From NCBI RefSeq assembly GCF_022637395.1, contig NZ_CP093337.1, positions 2,340,001-2,404,000 on the forward strand: a DNA stretch of 64,000 nt, given 5' to 3'. This document shows positions 5,487 through 10,750 of this stretch, piece by piece. The notes beneath the pieces are model-generated. The model was not told the origin of the DNA. It saw only the letters and a list, made by a program, of their open reading frames with translations, and ran no database searches. How positions within the stretch are numbered: position 1 is the stretch's first letter; every line of letters begins with the position of its first letter. Position numbers and translations under genes: made by a program. The DNA is from Shinella sp. H4-D48 (GTDB taxonomy: Bacteria > Pseudomonadota > Alphaproteobacteria > Rhizobiales > Rhizobiaceae).

Positions 5487-6362
5487 ATGGAAGACTTTAT
5501 CAGCCGCTTCACTACCACGACGGACGGACTGCAACTCCATGTGCGGGACTATGCGCCCGTGTCTGGCGGCGCCTCCCGGCTTCCCGTGATCTGCCTGCCA
5601 GGGCTCAGCCGCAACAGCCGCGATTTCCATCCATTCGCAGAGCGCCTTTCCAAGGATACGACAACGCCACGGCGCGTCGTTGCCATCGATTATCGCGGCC
5701 GGGGCCGCTCGAGCCGCGATCCGGATCCCACACATTATAATGTCGGCGTGGAGTGCAGCGACGTGCTGGCCATCTGTGACGCGCTCGGCATCGCGCAGGC
5801 CATCTTCGTCGGCACCTCGCGTGGCGGATTGATTCTCCATATCATGGCGACGTTACAGCCGGAGCGGATCGCGGCGGCGGTTCTCAACGACATCGGGCCG
5901 GAGATCGAGGCGGAGGGTCTTCGGGATATCCGTGACTACCTCTCGCGGCAGACCGCGCTCGATGATTTCGAAGCGGCGGCCGACCATCTCGAAGCCGTTC
6001 ACGGCCCGGCCTTCCCTGTCCTAACCCGGCAGGACTGGCTGGATATGGCAAACGCAATCTATGTCGAGGACAATGGCTGCCTGGTCGCAGACCACGACTC
6101 TGCGCTTGTGGCGCCCTTGCGGGCCATGGATTTCTCCCAGCCCCTGCCGACGCTCTGGCCACAATTCGCCCTGCTGGCCCAAAAGCCGCTGCTCGTGGTG
6201 CGCGGCGAATATTCCAAGCTTTTTTCCGCGAAGACATTGGCGCGCATGAAGGCGCAGGAGCCGATTATTGAAACCACGACGGCAAATGGCCAAGGCCACG
6301 CTCCCCTACTGCACCAGCCGGGATTGTTCGAGCGGGTCAAGGCGTTTCTGGACAATTACTAA
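5487..6362 (+). CDS. alpha/beta-fold hydrolase
   Basis: 291 residues with the classic alpha/beta-hydrolase layout: oxyanion loop ICLPGLSRNSRDF (about 35-47), a GRGRSS turn, the nucleophile elbow FVGTSRGG with Ser111, an acidic residue near the VRGEYSKLF strand, and a C-terminal GHAP(L)LHQP motif carrying the catalytic His (about 270). The family includes esterases, epoxide hydrolases and C-C hydrolases; the substrate cannot be read from the sequence. There is no signal peptide, so it is cytoplasmic. It follows the transglycosylase terminator and converges on the porin gene. Confidence 0.85.
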   Translation: MEDFISRFTTTTDGLQLHVRDYAPVSGGASRLPVICLPGLSRNSRDFHPFAERLSKDTTTPRRVVAIDYRGRGRSSRDPDPTHYNVGVECSDVLAICDALGIAQAIFVGTSRGGLILHIMATLQPERIAAAVLNDIGPEIEAEGLRDIRDYLSRQTALDDFEAAADHLEAVHGPAFPVLTRQDWLDMANAIYVEDNGCLVADHDSALVAPLRAMDFSQPLPTLWPQFALLAQKPLLVVRGEYSKLFSAKTLARMKAQEPIIETTTANGQGHAPLLHQPGLFERVKAFLDNY

Positions 6363-6462: not shown

Positions 6463-7551
6463 TTAGAAGTTGCGCTGCAGGCGGAGGAAGCCGCGAACGA
6501 AGTCGTCGTTGTCCGCACCGTCATCAACCTTGTTCCAGTCGGCGGTCGCCAGCAGGTTCAGGCCGGATACGACTTCGTAACCGATCGTCGCACCAACGCG
6601 CCACTGATGCGTGTCGTTGACGAAGTCAGCACCACCGAACGACAGCTTGTCGAAGTACTGCACGCCGGGGGTGATCGTCAGGCGCTCCGTGGCCTTAAAG
6701 GCGTAGGAAGCGGCAACGGTCCACTCAGAAGCGGCCCAGTAAGCATTCGGGTCGGAAGCCCAGATACCGGCAAGCTGGAAGGTGCCCGGACCGGCCTCAG
6801 CCGACAGGATAGCGCGGATCGCGCCTTCTTCTGCAGCATTGTCGTAACCACCGAGAACATCAAGGTTCACGCCACCGAGCGAGAAGCCAACCGTACCGGC
6901 AATACCGAAGTCGTGATAGTGATCACCCAGAACGATCGGCGGACCAAAGGAATCGATGATATCATACTCGATTTCGTCAACCGAGAGACCTGCACGCCAG
7001 GTGCCGCCATCGTAGGTGTAAGCGATCGAGTTGAAAGCCGTGATGTTACCAAGGGTGTCGTTCTCACCGTTGATACCGCTATCCCACCAGCTGTAGAACT
7101 TACCGACCTTGAAGCCGGCCAGTTCGATGAAGGCTTCATCGATGTAGAAGTCGTTGCCCGAACGCGAACCAGCACCGCCAGCATTGGCTTCGATGTTGAT
7201 GTACGAACGCAGCGTGCCGAGCTCGGTGTCGTTACGGGCATCGAGGTTCACGTTGATGCGCGTGAACGAATCCCAATCAGAGGCACCGCCGTCACGCAGG
7301 TAGTCCTGGTTCGAGCTAACGCCGACCGGGTCGTTGTCCGAACCAAACGAGGTCTGGAAGCGAACGAAGCCGCCGATCTTGAGGCAGGTTTCGGTGCCCG
7401 GGATGTAGAAGAAGCCGGTGCCGAAGGCGTCGCAAACGCGAACGTATTCCATGGGCTCGGGCTCAGCAGCGACGATGGCGTCGGCGGCCTGTGCGCCGGA
7501 TACTGCCACGAGAGCGGCAGCGGAGCCGATGAGAAGGCTCTTGATGTTCAT
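6463..7551 (-). CDS. rhizobial-type outer-membrane porin (paralogue A)
   Basis: 362 residues of the alphaproteobacterial porin family (PF02530 type, e.g. RopA/Omp2b). A signal peptide MNIKSLLIGSAAALVAVSGA ends around AQA|AD. The mature start DAIVAAEPEPMEYVRVCDAFG and YIPGTETCLKIGG (two Cys) are family hallmarks. The body alternates beta strands and loops, and the protein ends GFLRLQRNF with the C-terminal Phe needed for Bam insertion. The start at 7551 (not further upstream) is fixed by GGAGG 8-12 bases before ATG and by identity to paralogue B. Codons 1-70 are identical at DNA level to the divergent paralogue at 8228. It forms passive diffusion channels. Confidence 0.93.
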   Translation of the reverse strand: MNIKSLLIGSAAALVAVSGAQAADAIVAAEPEPMEYVRVCDAFGTGFFYIPGTETCLKIGGFVRFQTSFGSDNDPVGVSSNQDYLRDGGASDWDSFTRINVNLDARNDTELGTLRSYINIEANAGGAGSRSGNDFYIDEAFIELAGFKVGKFYSWWDSGINGENDTLGNITAFNSIAYTYDGGTWRAGLSVDEIEYDIIDSFGPPIVLGDHYHDFGIAGTVGFSLGGVNLDVLGGYDNAAEEGAIRAILSAEAGPGTFQLAGIWASDPNAYWAASEWTVAASYAFKATERLTITPGVQYFDKLSFGGADFVNDTHQWRVGATIGYEVVSGLNLLATADWNKVDDGADNDDFVRGFLRLQRNF

Positions 7552-7572
7552 TTCTGACCTCCAGTCAAAAAG
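7342..7572 (-). repeat. left arm of a 231-bp perfect inverted repeat (porin A 5' end)
   Basis: The reverse complement of 7342-7572 is identical, base for base by eye, to 8207-8437. The arm covers 21 bases of leader with the ribosome-binding site, the signal peptide and the first 70 codons of the porin. Confidence 0.95.
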
Positions 7573-8206
7573 TTTCAAACGGGTCTGGGTTTTTTGCTGA
7601 AGGACAGCGTTCCCTGCCCCATCCCCAAGTTCAGGAAGCGGACGAACAACCGCCCCTGCTTCCGAAAGTGAAAATACAAGACGCGTTTCCGTAAGCAATC
7701 ATCAAACTGAAACGAGGCAGGGTTTCTGTCAGCCTTCGCCCGTGCCTGTTGCGCAAAGGACACAAAATGGCAGCCGGGATCGCTAAAAGTTTATGGATCC
7801 TTAACAAAAAACCTTATGTAGCCGTCACTTAGCCGGTGGCGCATCCCTGGTGACGCCGTCACAATCCAGGCAGAAAGCCGGCAGACGCGGCCTCTTCGCA
7901 TGACGAGAGCGCGGTTTTTATGGGGCACTTCATGGATTGGGTCACCGCTGCCTCAAGGAAAATCGAGAATCGGTGCGCCATGTGGCTCGTTCGATTCGCC
8001 GGCGAATCGTGACCGCTTACGCAGCCGCTTGATGCGACTTCGCTCTAGGTCCGCACTGAACATTTAAGGCTTTGGATGACGTTGCAATCGGAAAAGCACG
8101 TACACTTCCATTTCGGCGACACACAACCCTCGCACACAAACACACTTTATATATTGCATATGGAAGCCAGGGGTTGATCAACCAGCAGAAAGCCACACGC
8201 GCGGCT
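7573..8206. promoter_or_regulatory. 634-bp intergenic segment between the porin inverted repeats; divergent promoters
   Basis: No credible gene. It must contain both porin promoters and most of both leaders. A perfect 12-bp palindrome GGTTGATCAACC lies at 8172-8183, 44 bases before the porin B ATG. An A+T-rich run (TTTATATATTGCATA) at about 8147-8161 is a possible -10 area for porin B. The segment is bounded on both sides by the 231-bp inverted repeat, so homologous recombination would invert it. Confidence 0.6.
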
Positions 8207-8437
8207 CTTTTTGACTGGAGGTCAGAAATGAACATCAAGAGCCTTCTCATCGGCTCCGCTGCCGCTCTCGTGGCAGTATCCGGCGCACAGGCCGCCGACG
8301 CCATCGTCGCTGCTGAGCCCGAGCCCATGGAATACGTTCGCGTTTGCGACGCCTTCGGCACCGGCTTCTTCTACATCCCGGGCACCGAAACCTGCCTCAA
8401 GATCGGCGGCTTCGTTCGCTTCCAGACCTCGTTTGGT
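8207..8437 (+). repeat. right arm of the 231-bp perfect inverted repeat (porin B 5' end)
   Basis: Identical in reverse complement to 7342-7572. Similarity stops abruptly at 8437/8438 inside codon 70-71 and at 8206/8207 in the leader. Confidence 0.95.
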
Positions 8438-9346
8438 CGTGACATCGGCGGCACTGCAAACGAGATCGACACGAACCTCGCTGGTTCTCACTCCGATTGG
8501 GATTCGTTCACGAAGGTTCAGGTGCAGTTCGACGCTCGCAATGACACCGAACTCGGCACGCTGCGTTCGTACATCGCAATCGAAGCCAATGCTGACTCTG
8601 ATCAGAACGGTGGTGATGGCGATTTCGATATCGACGAAGCCTTCATCGAACTCGCTGGTTTCAAGGTCGGCTTTTTCTATAGCTGGTGGGATAGCGGCAT
8701 CAACGGCGAAACCGACACGAACGGCAACACGACAGAGTTCAACTCGATCGCTTACACCTATGATGGTGGCACGTGGCGTGCAGGCCTCTCGCTTGATGAA
8801 ATCGAGGGCGCTGAATACGTCAAGAACAATCACAATCCTCTCGTCGTTGGCAACAACTTCAACCACAACAATCTTGGCGTAGCAGGTACTGTTGGCTTCT
8901 CACTTGGCGGTGTAAATCTCGACATCCTCGGTGGTTATGACAACGCCGTCGGTGAAGGCGCAATCCGCACAATCCTTTCCGCAGACCTTGGCCCCGGCAC
9001 TTTGCAGGTTCTTGGCGTCTGGGCTTCTGACCCGAATACGTATTGGGATGCATCCGAGTGGAGCATCGCAGCCTCATACGCTTTCAAGGCGACGGAAAAG
9101 CTGACGATTACGCCTGGCGTTCAATACTTTGACAATCTCGCTCTTAGCGGCAAGGTCAAGGGTCTCCCGAGCTACGGATTTAACAAAAACGAAGATCAGT
9201 GGCGCGTGGGCGTGACCGTAGGCTACGAGATCGTATCCGGTCTCAACTTCCTCGGTACGGTTAACTACAACAACCGTGACTCGAATGTTGCCTCGCGTGA
9301 TACGGACTGGACTTCCGGCTTCCTGCGTCTGCAGCGCAACTTCTAA
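8228..9346 (+). CDS. rhizobial-type outer-membrane porin (paralogue B)
   Basis: 372 residues of the same porin family as the divergent gene at 6463-7551, with the same signal peptide, mature N-terminus, EPEPMEYVRVCDAFG motif and terminal LRLQRNF. Shared internal blocks include ARNDTELGTLRSYI, IDEAFIELAGFKVG, SWWDSGING and FNSIAYTYDGGTWRAGLS. The surface-loop segments differ. After codon 70 the codon choice shifts to more A/T-ending codons than in paralogue A, so the gene is a mosaic: a conserved N-terminus joined to a diverged body. A terminator follows at 9379. Confidence 0.93.
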   Translation: MNIKSLLIGSAAALVAVSGAQAADAIVAAEPEPMEYVRVCDAFGTGFFYIPGTETCLKIGGFVRFQTSFGRDIGGTANEIDTNLAGSHSDWDSFTKVQVQFDARNDTELGTLRSYIAIEANADSDQNGGDGDFDIDEAFIELAGFKVGFFYSWWDSGINGETDTNGNTTEFNSIAYTYDGGTWRAGLSLDEIEGAEYVKNNHNPLVVGNNFNHNNLGVAGTVGFSLGGVNLDILGGYDNAVGEGAIRTILSADLGPGTLQVLGVWASDPNTYWDASEWSIAASYAFKATEKLTITPGVQYFDNLALSGKVKGLPSYGFNKNEDQWRVGVTVGYEIVSGLNFLGTVNYNNRDSNVASRDTDWTSGFLRLQRNF

Positions 9347-9495: not shown

Positions 9496-10395
9496 ATGTT
9501 AAACCCTCCATTGATGAGCGGCCCCTACCGCTTGAATTATCAGTTTCAGAGCGCCCGTAATCAGGCATCGCTTCGCGCCCTGCTCGATCGATACGTCGAT
9601 GTTCTCTGGGAACCGGGCTCGCATAAATACAATGTGACGTCTTTTGTCGGCGAACTCGACGAGGTCCTGCTCGGTGCCGAATTCTCGGAGTTTACCGACG
9701 AGATGATGGACACGCTGACGGGCGCGCTTCGCAAGCGCGGCAACAGCAATGCCACCATCAACCGCAAGATGGCCGCACTCAGCAAGCTCCTGAAGAAGGC
9801 CCAGAAGATGGGCGATATCCAGGGCCTGCCGGAGTTCAAGCGCCTGAAGGAGAAGGCCGGGCGCATCCGCTTTCTCGAGCCGGAAGAGGAAAACCGGCTC
9901 TTTGCCGCCATATCCGAGAAATCGGAGCTCTACGGTCGCTTCTGTACCTTCCTTATCGATACGGGGGCGCGGCTGGGCGAGGGTATCGGCCTTCGATGGC
10001 AGGATCTGAATCAGGATCGCGTGACGTTCTGGCTGACGAAAAGCGGCAAAAGCCGCTCTGTTCCGCTCACCGAGAGGGCAGCCGCGGCCATCCAGGCATC
10101 AGAGCGCAAGCGACGCGGACCTTTCACGAGCATTGTCCAGGCGAAATTCAGGGCGGCCTGGAACGAGGCGAAGCAGGAGGTTGGCCTCGGCTCGGAACCG
10201 GATGTCGTTCCGCATATTCTGCGACACACCTGTGCATCGCGGCTCGTTCAGGGCGGCATCGATATCAGGCGCGTGCAGACATGGCTCGGGCACCAGACGC
10301 TGCAGATGACGATGCGTTATGCGCATCTCGCATCCGGCGATCTCGATGTCTGTGTCCCCGTTCTGGAGCACGCCGCCCGTATCAAGGCGCCGTAG
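9496..10395 (+). CDS. tyrosine site-specific recombinase (phage integrase family)
   Basis: 299 residues. The N-terminal half carries a SAM-like core-binding domain (about 20-120), the C-terminal half the catalytic domain. All catalytic residues are visible: Arg159 (DTGARLGEG), the beta-hairpin Lys (LTKSGKSRSVPL), His240-x-x-Arg243 (HILRHTCASRL), His266 (LGHQTLQM) and nucleophile Tyr275 (MRYAH). It should therefore be active in DNA strand exchange. It is not XerC/D-like in its N-terminus and is closer to phage or island integrases. No excisionase, attachment repeat or other phage gene is nearby. The 5' end of a tRNA-Ser gene is 265 bases downstream. It may be a remnant of an element or a domesticated recombinase. 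Confidence 0.88.
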   Translation: MLNPPLMSGPYRLNYQFQSARNQASLRALLDRYVDVLWEPGSHKYNVTSFVGELDEVLLGAEFSEFTDEMMDTLTGALRKRGNSNATINRKMAALSKLLKKAQKMGDIQGLPEFKRLKEKAGRIRFLEPEEENRLFAAISEKSELYGRFCTFLIDTGARLGEGIGLRWQDLNQDRVTFWLTKSGKSRSVPLTERAAAAIQASERKRRGPFTSIVQAKFRAAWNEAKQEVGLGSEPDVVPHILRHTCASRLVQGGIDIRRVQTWLGHQTLQMTMRYAHLASGDLDVCVPVLEHAARIKAP

Positions 10396-10660: not shown

Positions 10661-10750
10661 GGAGAGGTGGCCGAGTGGTCGAAGGCGCTCCCCTGCTAAG
10701 GGAGTATACCGGAAACGGTATCGAGGGTTCGAATCCCTTCTTCTCCGCCA
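10661..10750 (+). tRNA. tRNA-Ser (anticodon GCU)
   Basis: A 90-base cloverleaf: acceptor GGAGAGG pairs with CTTCTCC (one G-U), the anticodon stem CTCCC/GGGAG encloses CTGCTAA with anticodon GCT, then a long variable arm typical of class II tRNAs, the T arm GGGTTCGAATCCC, discriminator G and an encoded CCA. It reads AGC/AGU serine codons. Confidence 0.97.

What the first reader, a model, noticed from the sequence alone, without database searches (positions are those of the whole stretch)
7342..8437. Perfect 231-bp inverted repeat between divergent porins could invert their shared promoter region
7342-7572 and 8207-8437 are exact reverse complements (checked line by line). Each includes the ribosome-binding site, signal peptide and first 70 codons of a porin, and they enclose a 634-bp intergenic segment with both promoters. 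Recombination between the arms would flip that segment and give each porin the other's promoter and leader without changing either protein. This would be a simple switch for outer-membrane composition. Perfect identity beside diverged gene bodies implies recent exchange or ongoing gene conversion.
Basis: partly seen in the sequence, partly recalled or inferred. Interest (0 to 1): 0.75.

Follow-up and report, generated by a model that had tools for sequence, protein, structure and literature searches.

The report
Flippable promoter segment between two porins
Two outer-membrane pore genes that point away from each other share identical starts, and comparison with related bacteria shows that the DNA between them, which holds their control region, has repeatedly turned around during evolution, probably switching which pore gene gets the main promoter.

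Summary
The predicted inversion is supported on the evolutionary scale. The locus belongs to a Rhizobiaceae module: porin<, spacer, porin>, tyrosine recombinase>. In 83 such loci from 28 genera the spacer lies in two orientations, 63 as here and 20 opposite; 8 genera, Shinella (the window's genus, inferred) included, hold both; at least 13 changes on the recombinase tree, 8 forced. Four sister comparisons show both porins in place and only the spacer turned. A tRNA-Ser(GCU) gene inside 52 of 73 non-Shinella spacers changes strand exactly with the spacer. One spacer end carries a conserved leader (P_A), the other a variable one, so inversion hands P_A to the other porin. The recombinase (9496-10395) is under purifying selection; in the listed matches it accompanies inverted porin pairs (22 of 22) and not direct tandems (0 of 19), with exceptions elsewhere. 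Not shown: inversion within one population, any effect on expression, or whether this enzyme or homologous recombination does it. Gene conversion also homogenises the arms, as in Brucella omp2.

The parts
7342..7572 (-). left arm of the perfect inverted repeat: leader and codons 1-70 of porin A
   Evidence: identical to the reverse complement of 8207-8437
8207..8437 (+). right arm of the perfect inverted repeat: leader and codons 1-70 of porin B
7573..8206 (.). 634-bp spacer, the segment that is found in both orientations among relatives
   Evidence: same orientation in 9 of 10 Shinella pairs (window included), inverted in S. fusca; 63 and 20 of 83 loci in the family
7573..7857 (-). P_A side of the spacer: conserved leader/promoter region, next to porin A here
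   Evidence: a match to at least the first 261 nt in 21 of 21 Shinella genomes, own included; 85-92% identical over 282-347 nt in seven same-orientation pairs and 83% over the whole spacer in L101; family-wide conservation of P_A
7858..8206 (+). P_B side of the spacer: variable upstream region of porin B; the exact border with P_A is not known
7552..7568 (-). 17-nt leader element TTGACTGGAGGTCAGAA over the ribosome-binding site (copy A)
   Evidence: only two exact copies in the window's genome, both here; core GACTGGAGGTCA in 165 of 166 arms of 83 pairs
8211..8227 (+). 17-nt leader element (copy B), possible crossover site
   Evidence: role as crossover site is inference
6463..7551 (-). porin A, 362 aa
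   Evidence: PF02530
8228..9346 (+). porin B, 372 aa
   Evidence: PF02530
9496..10395 (+). XerC/D-like tyrosine recombinase linked to the porin pair
   Evidence: PF00589 E 1.3e-28; R159 K182 H240 R243 H266 Y275 identical in 83 of 83 sequences, dN/dS 0.06-0.14 against nine congeners
10661..10750 (+). tRNA-Ser(GCU); in 52 of 73 non-Shinella loci this gene lies inside the spacer
5487..6362 (+). alpha/beta hydrolase that marks the left flank
   Evidence: PF00561; synteny

Best explanation
The spacer is an invertible control segment. It carries two unlike upstream regions, a conserved one (P_A) and a variable one (P_B). Recombination between the two inverted copies of the porin start (leader element plus signal-peptide codons) turns the spacer around; both coding regions stay intact because the arms are alike, but each porin receives the other's upstream region. 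SHOWN by comparison: the spacer has inverted repeatedly in the family, by itself, with ends inside the arms. INFERRED: this changes which porin is mainly made, a selectable change because such porins are phage receptors in rhizobia. INFERRED, less surely (about 0.55): the crossover is made by the neighbouring tyrosine recombinase at or near the leader element; otherwise RecA-type recombination through the arms does it. Gene conversion between the arms runs alongside and keeps them alike.
For: Two-state orientation in 83 loci, 63 and 20, with 2517 of 2533 similar pairs consistent; both states in 8 of 28 genera; at least 13 changes on the recombinase tree, 8 forced by starred branches. Four sister comparisons (L172/L179, L168/L176, L176/L187, L194/L195) are collinear up to 16-20 nt upstream of each ATG, and what can be aligned between is inverted; in L172/L179 the bodies are not swapped, 0.87 and 0.89 in place against 0.66 and 0.63 crosswise. 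tRNA-Ser(GCU) inside the spacer is on + in 35 of 35 same-state loci that hold it and on - in 17 of 17 opposite-state loci that hold it. With spacers brought into one sense, the motif CCAGACCC is in the last 80 nt of P_A in 75 of 83 and of P_B in 2 of 83. Recombinase: in 11 of 21 Shinella genomes, the same 11 that carry two porins at this locus; among adjacent porin pairs readable in the roughly 150 best matches that one search lists, 22 of 22 with it are inverted (17 divergent, window included; 5 convergent, one genus) and 19 of 19 without it are direct tandems. Some opposite-state assemblies have few contigs: G195 1, G360 5.
Against: No within-population or strain-level inversion was tested. 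Orientation is clustered on the tree (13 against a shuffled mean of about 18, 0 of 500 as low), so switching is not fast and free; g41 and g94 are 6 of 6 one way. The leader core is also in the ten single-porin Shinella loci without the recombinase and at the first copy found in 19 of 19 tandems, so it may be kept for translation. High 5' identity also occurs in tandems: median 0.935 of the first 200 nt in 13, against 0.975 in 83 inverted pairs. Exceptions to the association: Shinella G009 has the recombinase between two porins in direct order, and a Ciceribacter locus (L076) has a divergent pair with no recombinase hit in the fetched stretch, with the core at only one of its porins. The recombinase also travels with single porins on plasmids. 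Three of 83 recombinase sequences had a stop inside the tblastn match. In S. fusca, the one inverted Shinella, the history of the bodies is ambiguous and the assembly is a draft of about 40 contigs.
Confidence: 0.72

Rival explanations
1. Homologous (RecA) recombination and gene conversion between duplicated porins explain everything: inversions are rare accidents between inverted copies, neutral or nearly so, and the recombinase has no part.
For: Arms of over 100 bp are ample for RecA (general knowledge); gene conversion is evident (G016 porins identical over 1125 nt); in Agrobacterium a phage-resistant clone arose by recombination between tandem ropA1 and ropA2 (PMC10132094, passages); 5' identity is high in tandems too; orientation is phylogenetically clustered.
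Against: Association of recombinase and inverted pairs (22 of 22 against 0 of 19 in the listed matches; exceptions); exact arms as short as 16+72 nt in L172/L179, where inversion is seen; recombinase under purifying selection with six catalytic residues kept in 83 of 83.
Confidence: 0.35
2. The recombinase is the integrase of a mobile porin cassette (porin plus recombinase); it brings in second porins, and inversions are a by-product of the resulting inverted homology.
For: Porin-recombinase units without a second porin in the stretches fetched from plasmids of S. meliloti, S. medicae, Pseudorhizobium flavum and Ensifer adhaerens, and two such units in tandem next to a third porin in S. meliloti Ak57; in Shinella G009 the P_A-type leader precedes one porin, then come the recombinase and the other porin; a tRNA gene, a usual integration target (general knowledge), is next to or inside the module.
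Against: No second exact copy of 16 nt from the tRNA 3' end in 13 family loci checked or in the window; three of the five stretches from the plasmid collection (L284, L285, L287) lack the exact leader core; the layout porin<, porin>, recombinase> recurs in 75 of 120 fetched loci, which looks like long residence.
Confidence: 0.35
3. The opposite orientations are assembly errors: short reads cannot be placed across identical inverted arms.
For: Many assemblies end within about 2.5 kb of the recombinase, at or near the porin (contig starts); S. fusca and many other opposite-state genomes are drafts.
Against: Opposite state also in a 1-contig (G195) and a 5-contig (G360) assembly, the latter against 5-contig G225 of the same genus; in L172/L179 exact arms are only 88 nt, less than a usual read.
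Confidence: 0.05

Closest known systems
Brucella omp2a/omp2b porin locus
   Same: Two linked porins in opposite directions about 830 bp apart, extensive gene conversion, only one copy reported as expressed (PMC7050475, abstract and passages)
   Different: That paper describes gene conversion of the genes; the words promoter, recombinase, integrase, upstream and intergenic do not occur in its main text as held. Whether Brucella has the recombinase or an inverting spacer was not tested here.
Invertible promoter switches with linked tyrosine recombinase (E. coli fimS with FimB/FimE; Bacteroides fragilis invertible promoters)
   Same: Control segment between inverted repeats, both orientations in nature, linked tyrosine recombinase; the window enzyme has weak matches to two NCBIfam tyrosine-type DNA invertase models (37.6 and 30.2 bits, cut-offs 222 and 221)
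   Different: Those have short repeats and usually switch one operon on or off (recalled); here the repeats reach into both coding regions, two porins exchange upstream regions, and in many genera the segment carries a tRNA gene. B. fragilis example: PMC4747536, search listing only; fim is recalled.
Tandem ropA1/ropA2 of Agrobacterium
   Same: Porin pair of rhizobia; recombination between the copies gave phage resistance (PMC10132094, passages)
   Different: A deletion between tandem copies, not an inversion; the 19 direct tandems read have no recombinase hit
XerC/XerD
   Same: Tyrosine recombinase family (PF00589) and catalytic residues
   Different: Scores 86.7 and 88.4 bits against cut-offs of 335.15 and 329.6; the genome has 12 other PF00589 places

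Membership tests
Invertible promoter (phase-variation) switch | Control region between inverted repeats | tested here: met
   Perfect 231-bp inverted repeat around the shared upstream region; that it holds promoters is inferred
Invertible promoter (phase-variation) switch | Segment found in both orientations in nature with flanks unchanged | tested here: met
   63 and 20 of 83 loci; four sister comparisons with collinear flanks; between species, not within one strain
Invertible promoter (phase-variation) switch | Both orientations within one clonal population | not testable with these tools
   No reads; one genome per species
Invertible promoter (phase-variation) switch | Orientation changes expression | not testable with these tools
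   P_A and P_B differ strongly in conservation, but expression was not measured
Invertible promoter (phase-variation) switch | Dedicated recombinase acts on the repeats | tested here: inconclusive
   Linked, conserved and associated, with exceptions; catalysis not testable here
Brucella omp2-type porin pair | Two PF02530 porins in opposite directions | tested here: met
   that omp2 genes are PF02530 is recalled
Brucella omp2-type porin pair | Gene conversion between copies | tested here: met
   Genome-specific variants shared by both arms; identical pair in G016
Brucella omp2-type porin pair | Same locus by descent | not tested
   No record named Brucella was fetched
XerC or XerD | Passes NCBIfam equivalog cut-off | tested here: not met
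   TIGR02224 86.7 of 335.15; TIGR02225 88.4 of 329.6 bits

The most novel reading that the evidence does not exclude
Rhizobiaceae carry a dedicated porin switch: a porin-linked tyrosine recombinase inverts a promoter segment, which in many genera contains the tRNA-Ser(GCU) gene, at a leader element that doubles as ribosome-binding site, so that the main promoter is moved between two porins with like starts and different pores and receptors. It would be a family-wide phase-variation device for the major outer-membrane protein, and the Brucella omp2 pair may be a relic or member.
Probability: 0.45. Interest if true: 0.9.

Novelty: new variant of a known kind. Interest (0 to 1): 0.78.

Why it matters
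Main porins of rhizobia can be phage receptors (S. meliloti RopA1; PMC6256558 and PMC10132094, passages) and set what enters the cell. A segment that hands the conserved promoter from one porin to another would be a simple way to change receptor and permeability without mutating either gene, and would bear on why one of the two Brucella omp2 genes is reported as silent. It is directly testable with PCR or long reads in harmless strains. My searches of the open library for invertible, inverted or recombinase-linked porins (no paper; nine papers each, judged by titles and abstract starts, four's opened for passages) showed no description; subscription papers were not covered.

Tried and rejected
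Whole-pair inversion (bodies and spacer together) was considered first, because S. fusca looks like a mirror of G011; four sister comparisons elsewhere show spacer-only inversion, but for S. fusca itself the question stays open.

The leader element as proof of a recombinase site was rejected: it is also in single-porin genomes without the recombinase. The core is kept in 165 of 166 arms of inverted pairs and missing at the second copy of 5 of 13 tandems (six further tandems gave only one start in my script and are not in the 13), which is suggestive only.

Integration into tRNA-Ser with a duplicated 3' end was looked for by exact match and not found. The conserved block in the spacer of other genera was first taken for a possible small RNA; it is the tRNA-Ser gene. 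Rfam gave nothing in window 7300-8500 at E 1 or better. Sigma-70 and terminator scans gave nothing.

Rows dropped: of 139 family genomes with the recombinase, 5 are Shinella, 120 of the other 134 were fetched; the 14 not fetched have the weakest or partial matches with few exceptions. 75 of the 120 had the divergent layout in my annotation; 2 of these (L201, L226) were dropped because the start codons were not recognised, leaving 73, plus 10 Shinella pairs = 83. The other 45 were cut by contig ends or had other layouts. L239 is kept although the porin taken as its right-hand one is a third, nearer copy; it accounts for the one arm without the core. L263 is kept although a hydrolase match lies in its spacer. 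The 22-of-22 and 19-of-19 counts were read by eye from the roughly 150 best matches that one search lists; more matches exist, and closely related genomes are not independent. The state labels rest on whole-spacer similarity, so the P_A/P_B contrast is not independent of them; the tRNA strand is read separately but lies in the same sequence.

Full report
Observation. The two arms are identical over 231 of 231 bases and end at mismatches on both sides (repeat finder 241 nt at 98%, 634 nt apart). They hold 21 nt of leader and 70 codons of two PF02530 porins of 362 and 372 aa. Past the arms the genes share 67% of residues and 50% of third codon positions over 288 codons, so the identity is the result of exchange, not of protein conservation alone.

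Where it lies. The window is G000:C1 2,340,001-2,404,000 of a genome in three contigs; a search with porin B finds two porins at E 0.001 or better, these two. The pair stands between an alpha/beta hydrolase (5487-6362) and a tyrosine recombinase (9496-10395), followed by tRNA-Ser(GCU) at 10661-10750.

Congeners. All 21 Shinella genomes searched, own included, match at least the first 261 nt of the spacer, and I read the locus in the 20 others. Ten of 21, the window included, have the divergent pair; one (G009) has two porins in direct order with the recombinase between; ten have one porin at this locus. The recombinase is in exactly the 11 genomes with two porins here. In all ten divergent pairs the arms are exact for 110 to 1125 nt into the genes and 17 to 22 nt upstream, and genome-specific variants are shared by both copies, which is concerted evolution. 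In nine of ten the spacer has the window's orientation; in S. fusca it is inverted relative to both flanks, in both halves.

Family. The recombinase was found in 139 of 394 family genomes at E 1e-50 or better. I fetched 120 of the 134 that are not Shinella; 75 have porin<, spacer, porin>, recombinase>; 73 with recognised starts and the ten Shinella pairs give 83. Compared all against all, their spacers fall into two orientations relative to the recombinase, 63 like the window and 20 opposite, with 2517 consistent and 16 inconsistent pairs. Both states occur in 8 of 28 genera. On a tree of the 83 recombinases (quick method, SH-aLRT only) the state needs at least 13 changes, 8 of them forced by starred branches; shuffled labels need about 18 on average and none of 500 was as low. 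So inversion is recurrent, yet heritable over some time. The tree is of a linked gene, not of the genomes.

Only the spacer turns. In L172/L179, L168/L176, L176/L187 and L194/L195 direct collinearity runs through the left porin to 16-20 nt upstream of its ATG, what can be aligned of the spacer is inverted, and direct collinearity resumes 16-20 nt upstream of the right ATG. Because the two porins resemble each other, weaker inverted matches run on into them. In L172/L179 body identities are 0.87 and 0.89 in place against 0.66 and 0.63 crosswise; in L168/L176 0.80 and 0.87 against 0.72 and 0.74. Several other comparisons, L194/L195 and S. fusca among them, cannot be judged from bodies because copies have been homogenised or exchanged.

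An independent kind of marker. Rfam (four loci) and ARAGORN (all 73 non-Shinella loci) show a tRNA-Ser(GCU) gene inside the spacer of 52 of 73: on + in 35 of 35 same-state loci that have it and on - in 17 of 17 opposite-state loci that have it; 21 loci (19 same, 2 opposite) lack it. None of the ten Shinella spacers has it; it lies downstream of the recombinase in the window and in six of the other nine divergent pairs, and was not in the fetched stretch of three.

What changes hands. With all spacers brought to one sense, the P_A side has 91 of 229 columns conserved at 80% or more, the P_B side 18 of 187, nearly all in the leader element; the motif CCAGACCC lies in the last 80 nt of P_A in 75 of 83 and of P_B in 2 of 83. 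A consensus structure of the P_A leader in 45 sequences has two small hairpins, one of them over the ribosome-binding site, z -7.95 against 40 column shuffles, a weak control, and with little covariation. Inversion therefore gives the other porin the conserved leader and presumably the main promoter. Expression was not measured. In Brucella only omp2b is reported as expressed (PMC7050475, abstract and passages), which fits one main promoter for two genes.

Who does it. The recombinase keeps R159, K182, H240, R243, H266 and Y275 in 83 of 83 sequences (that these are the catalytic residues is recalled; counts) and has dN/dS (NG86) 0.06-0.14 against nine congeners; three of 83 sequences had a stop inside the tblastn match, not followed up. 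It is not XerC or XerD by NCBIfam cut-offs. Among adjacent porin pairs readable in the roughly 150 matches that one search lists, the 22 in genomes with it are inverted and the 19 in genomes without it are direct tandems; G009 and a Ciceribacter locus, L076, are exceptions outside that list. The leader element TTTTTGAC-TGGAG-GTCAGAAA is a near-palindrome over the ribosome-binding site; a 17-nt part of it occurs exactly twice in the window's genome and its 12-nt core in 165 of 166 arms. Against a simple story: the element is present without the recombinase, tandem porins also have alike 5' ends (median 0.935 in 13 against 0.975 in 83, Mann-Whitney p 0.003 without correction for kinship), and the recombinase is found with single porins on plasmids and in tandem units in S. 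meliloti Ak57, which suggests a mobile porin cassette. I put the recombinase as inverter at about 0.55 and homologous recombination at about 0.35-0.4; the cassette idea can be true together with either.

Artefact. Identical arms invite misassembly and many assemblies end near the porin. But opposite states are also in assemblies of one contig (G195) and five contigs (G360, against five-contig G225 of the same genus), and where exact arms are 88 nt.

Literature. Searches for recombinase- or inversion-linked porins gave no paper or papers that by title and abstract start are on other matters; one search lists Bacteroides invertible promoters. Of one search's nine I saw passages of four: they concern large chromosomal inversions or other matters, and one cites in its reference list a 1.7-kb inversion in the Brucella omp25/omp31 family, another outer-membrane locus, which I did not read. 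Rhizobial porins as phage receptors: PMC6256558 and PMC10132094, passages.

Verdict. Repeated natural inversion of the spacer is well supported; its use as a switch and its enzyme are inferences that simple experiments can settle.

Noticed in passing
L172, L179, L168, L195 and 48 further family loci, inside the porin spacer; window 10661-10750: tRNA-Ser(GCU) lies inside the invertible segment in 52 of 73 non-Shinella loci and changes strand with it; in Shinella it sits beyond the recombinase, or, where found, upstream of the single porin on either strand.
   Followed up: partly
L116 (G016): The two divergent porins are identical over the whole gene (374 aa) although its nearest relative on the recombinase tree, L117, has two different ones: complete homogenisation.
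   Followed up: no
L284-L288: Porin plus recombinase units without a second porin nearby on rhizobial plasmids, and two units in tandem beside a third porin in S. meliloti Ak57: a possible mobile porin cassette.
   Followed up: partly
L155-L157, L159, L160, L162: In these loci the porins converge on the recombinase (porin> recombinase> <porin), so the inverted copies enclose the recombinase instead of the upstream regions.
   Followed up: partly
L185 and L203 (genus g51): Mixed spacers: one outer end matches relatives in one sense and the tRNA block in the other, as if an inner part had turned by itself; they account for most of the 16 inconsistent pairs.
   Followed up: no
window 7552-7700, minus strand: The P_A leader is strongly conserved across the family and can form two small hairpins, one over the ribosome-binding site; no Rfam family.
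   Followed up: partly
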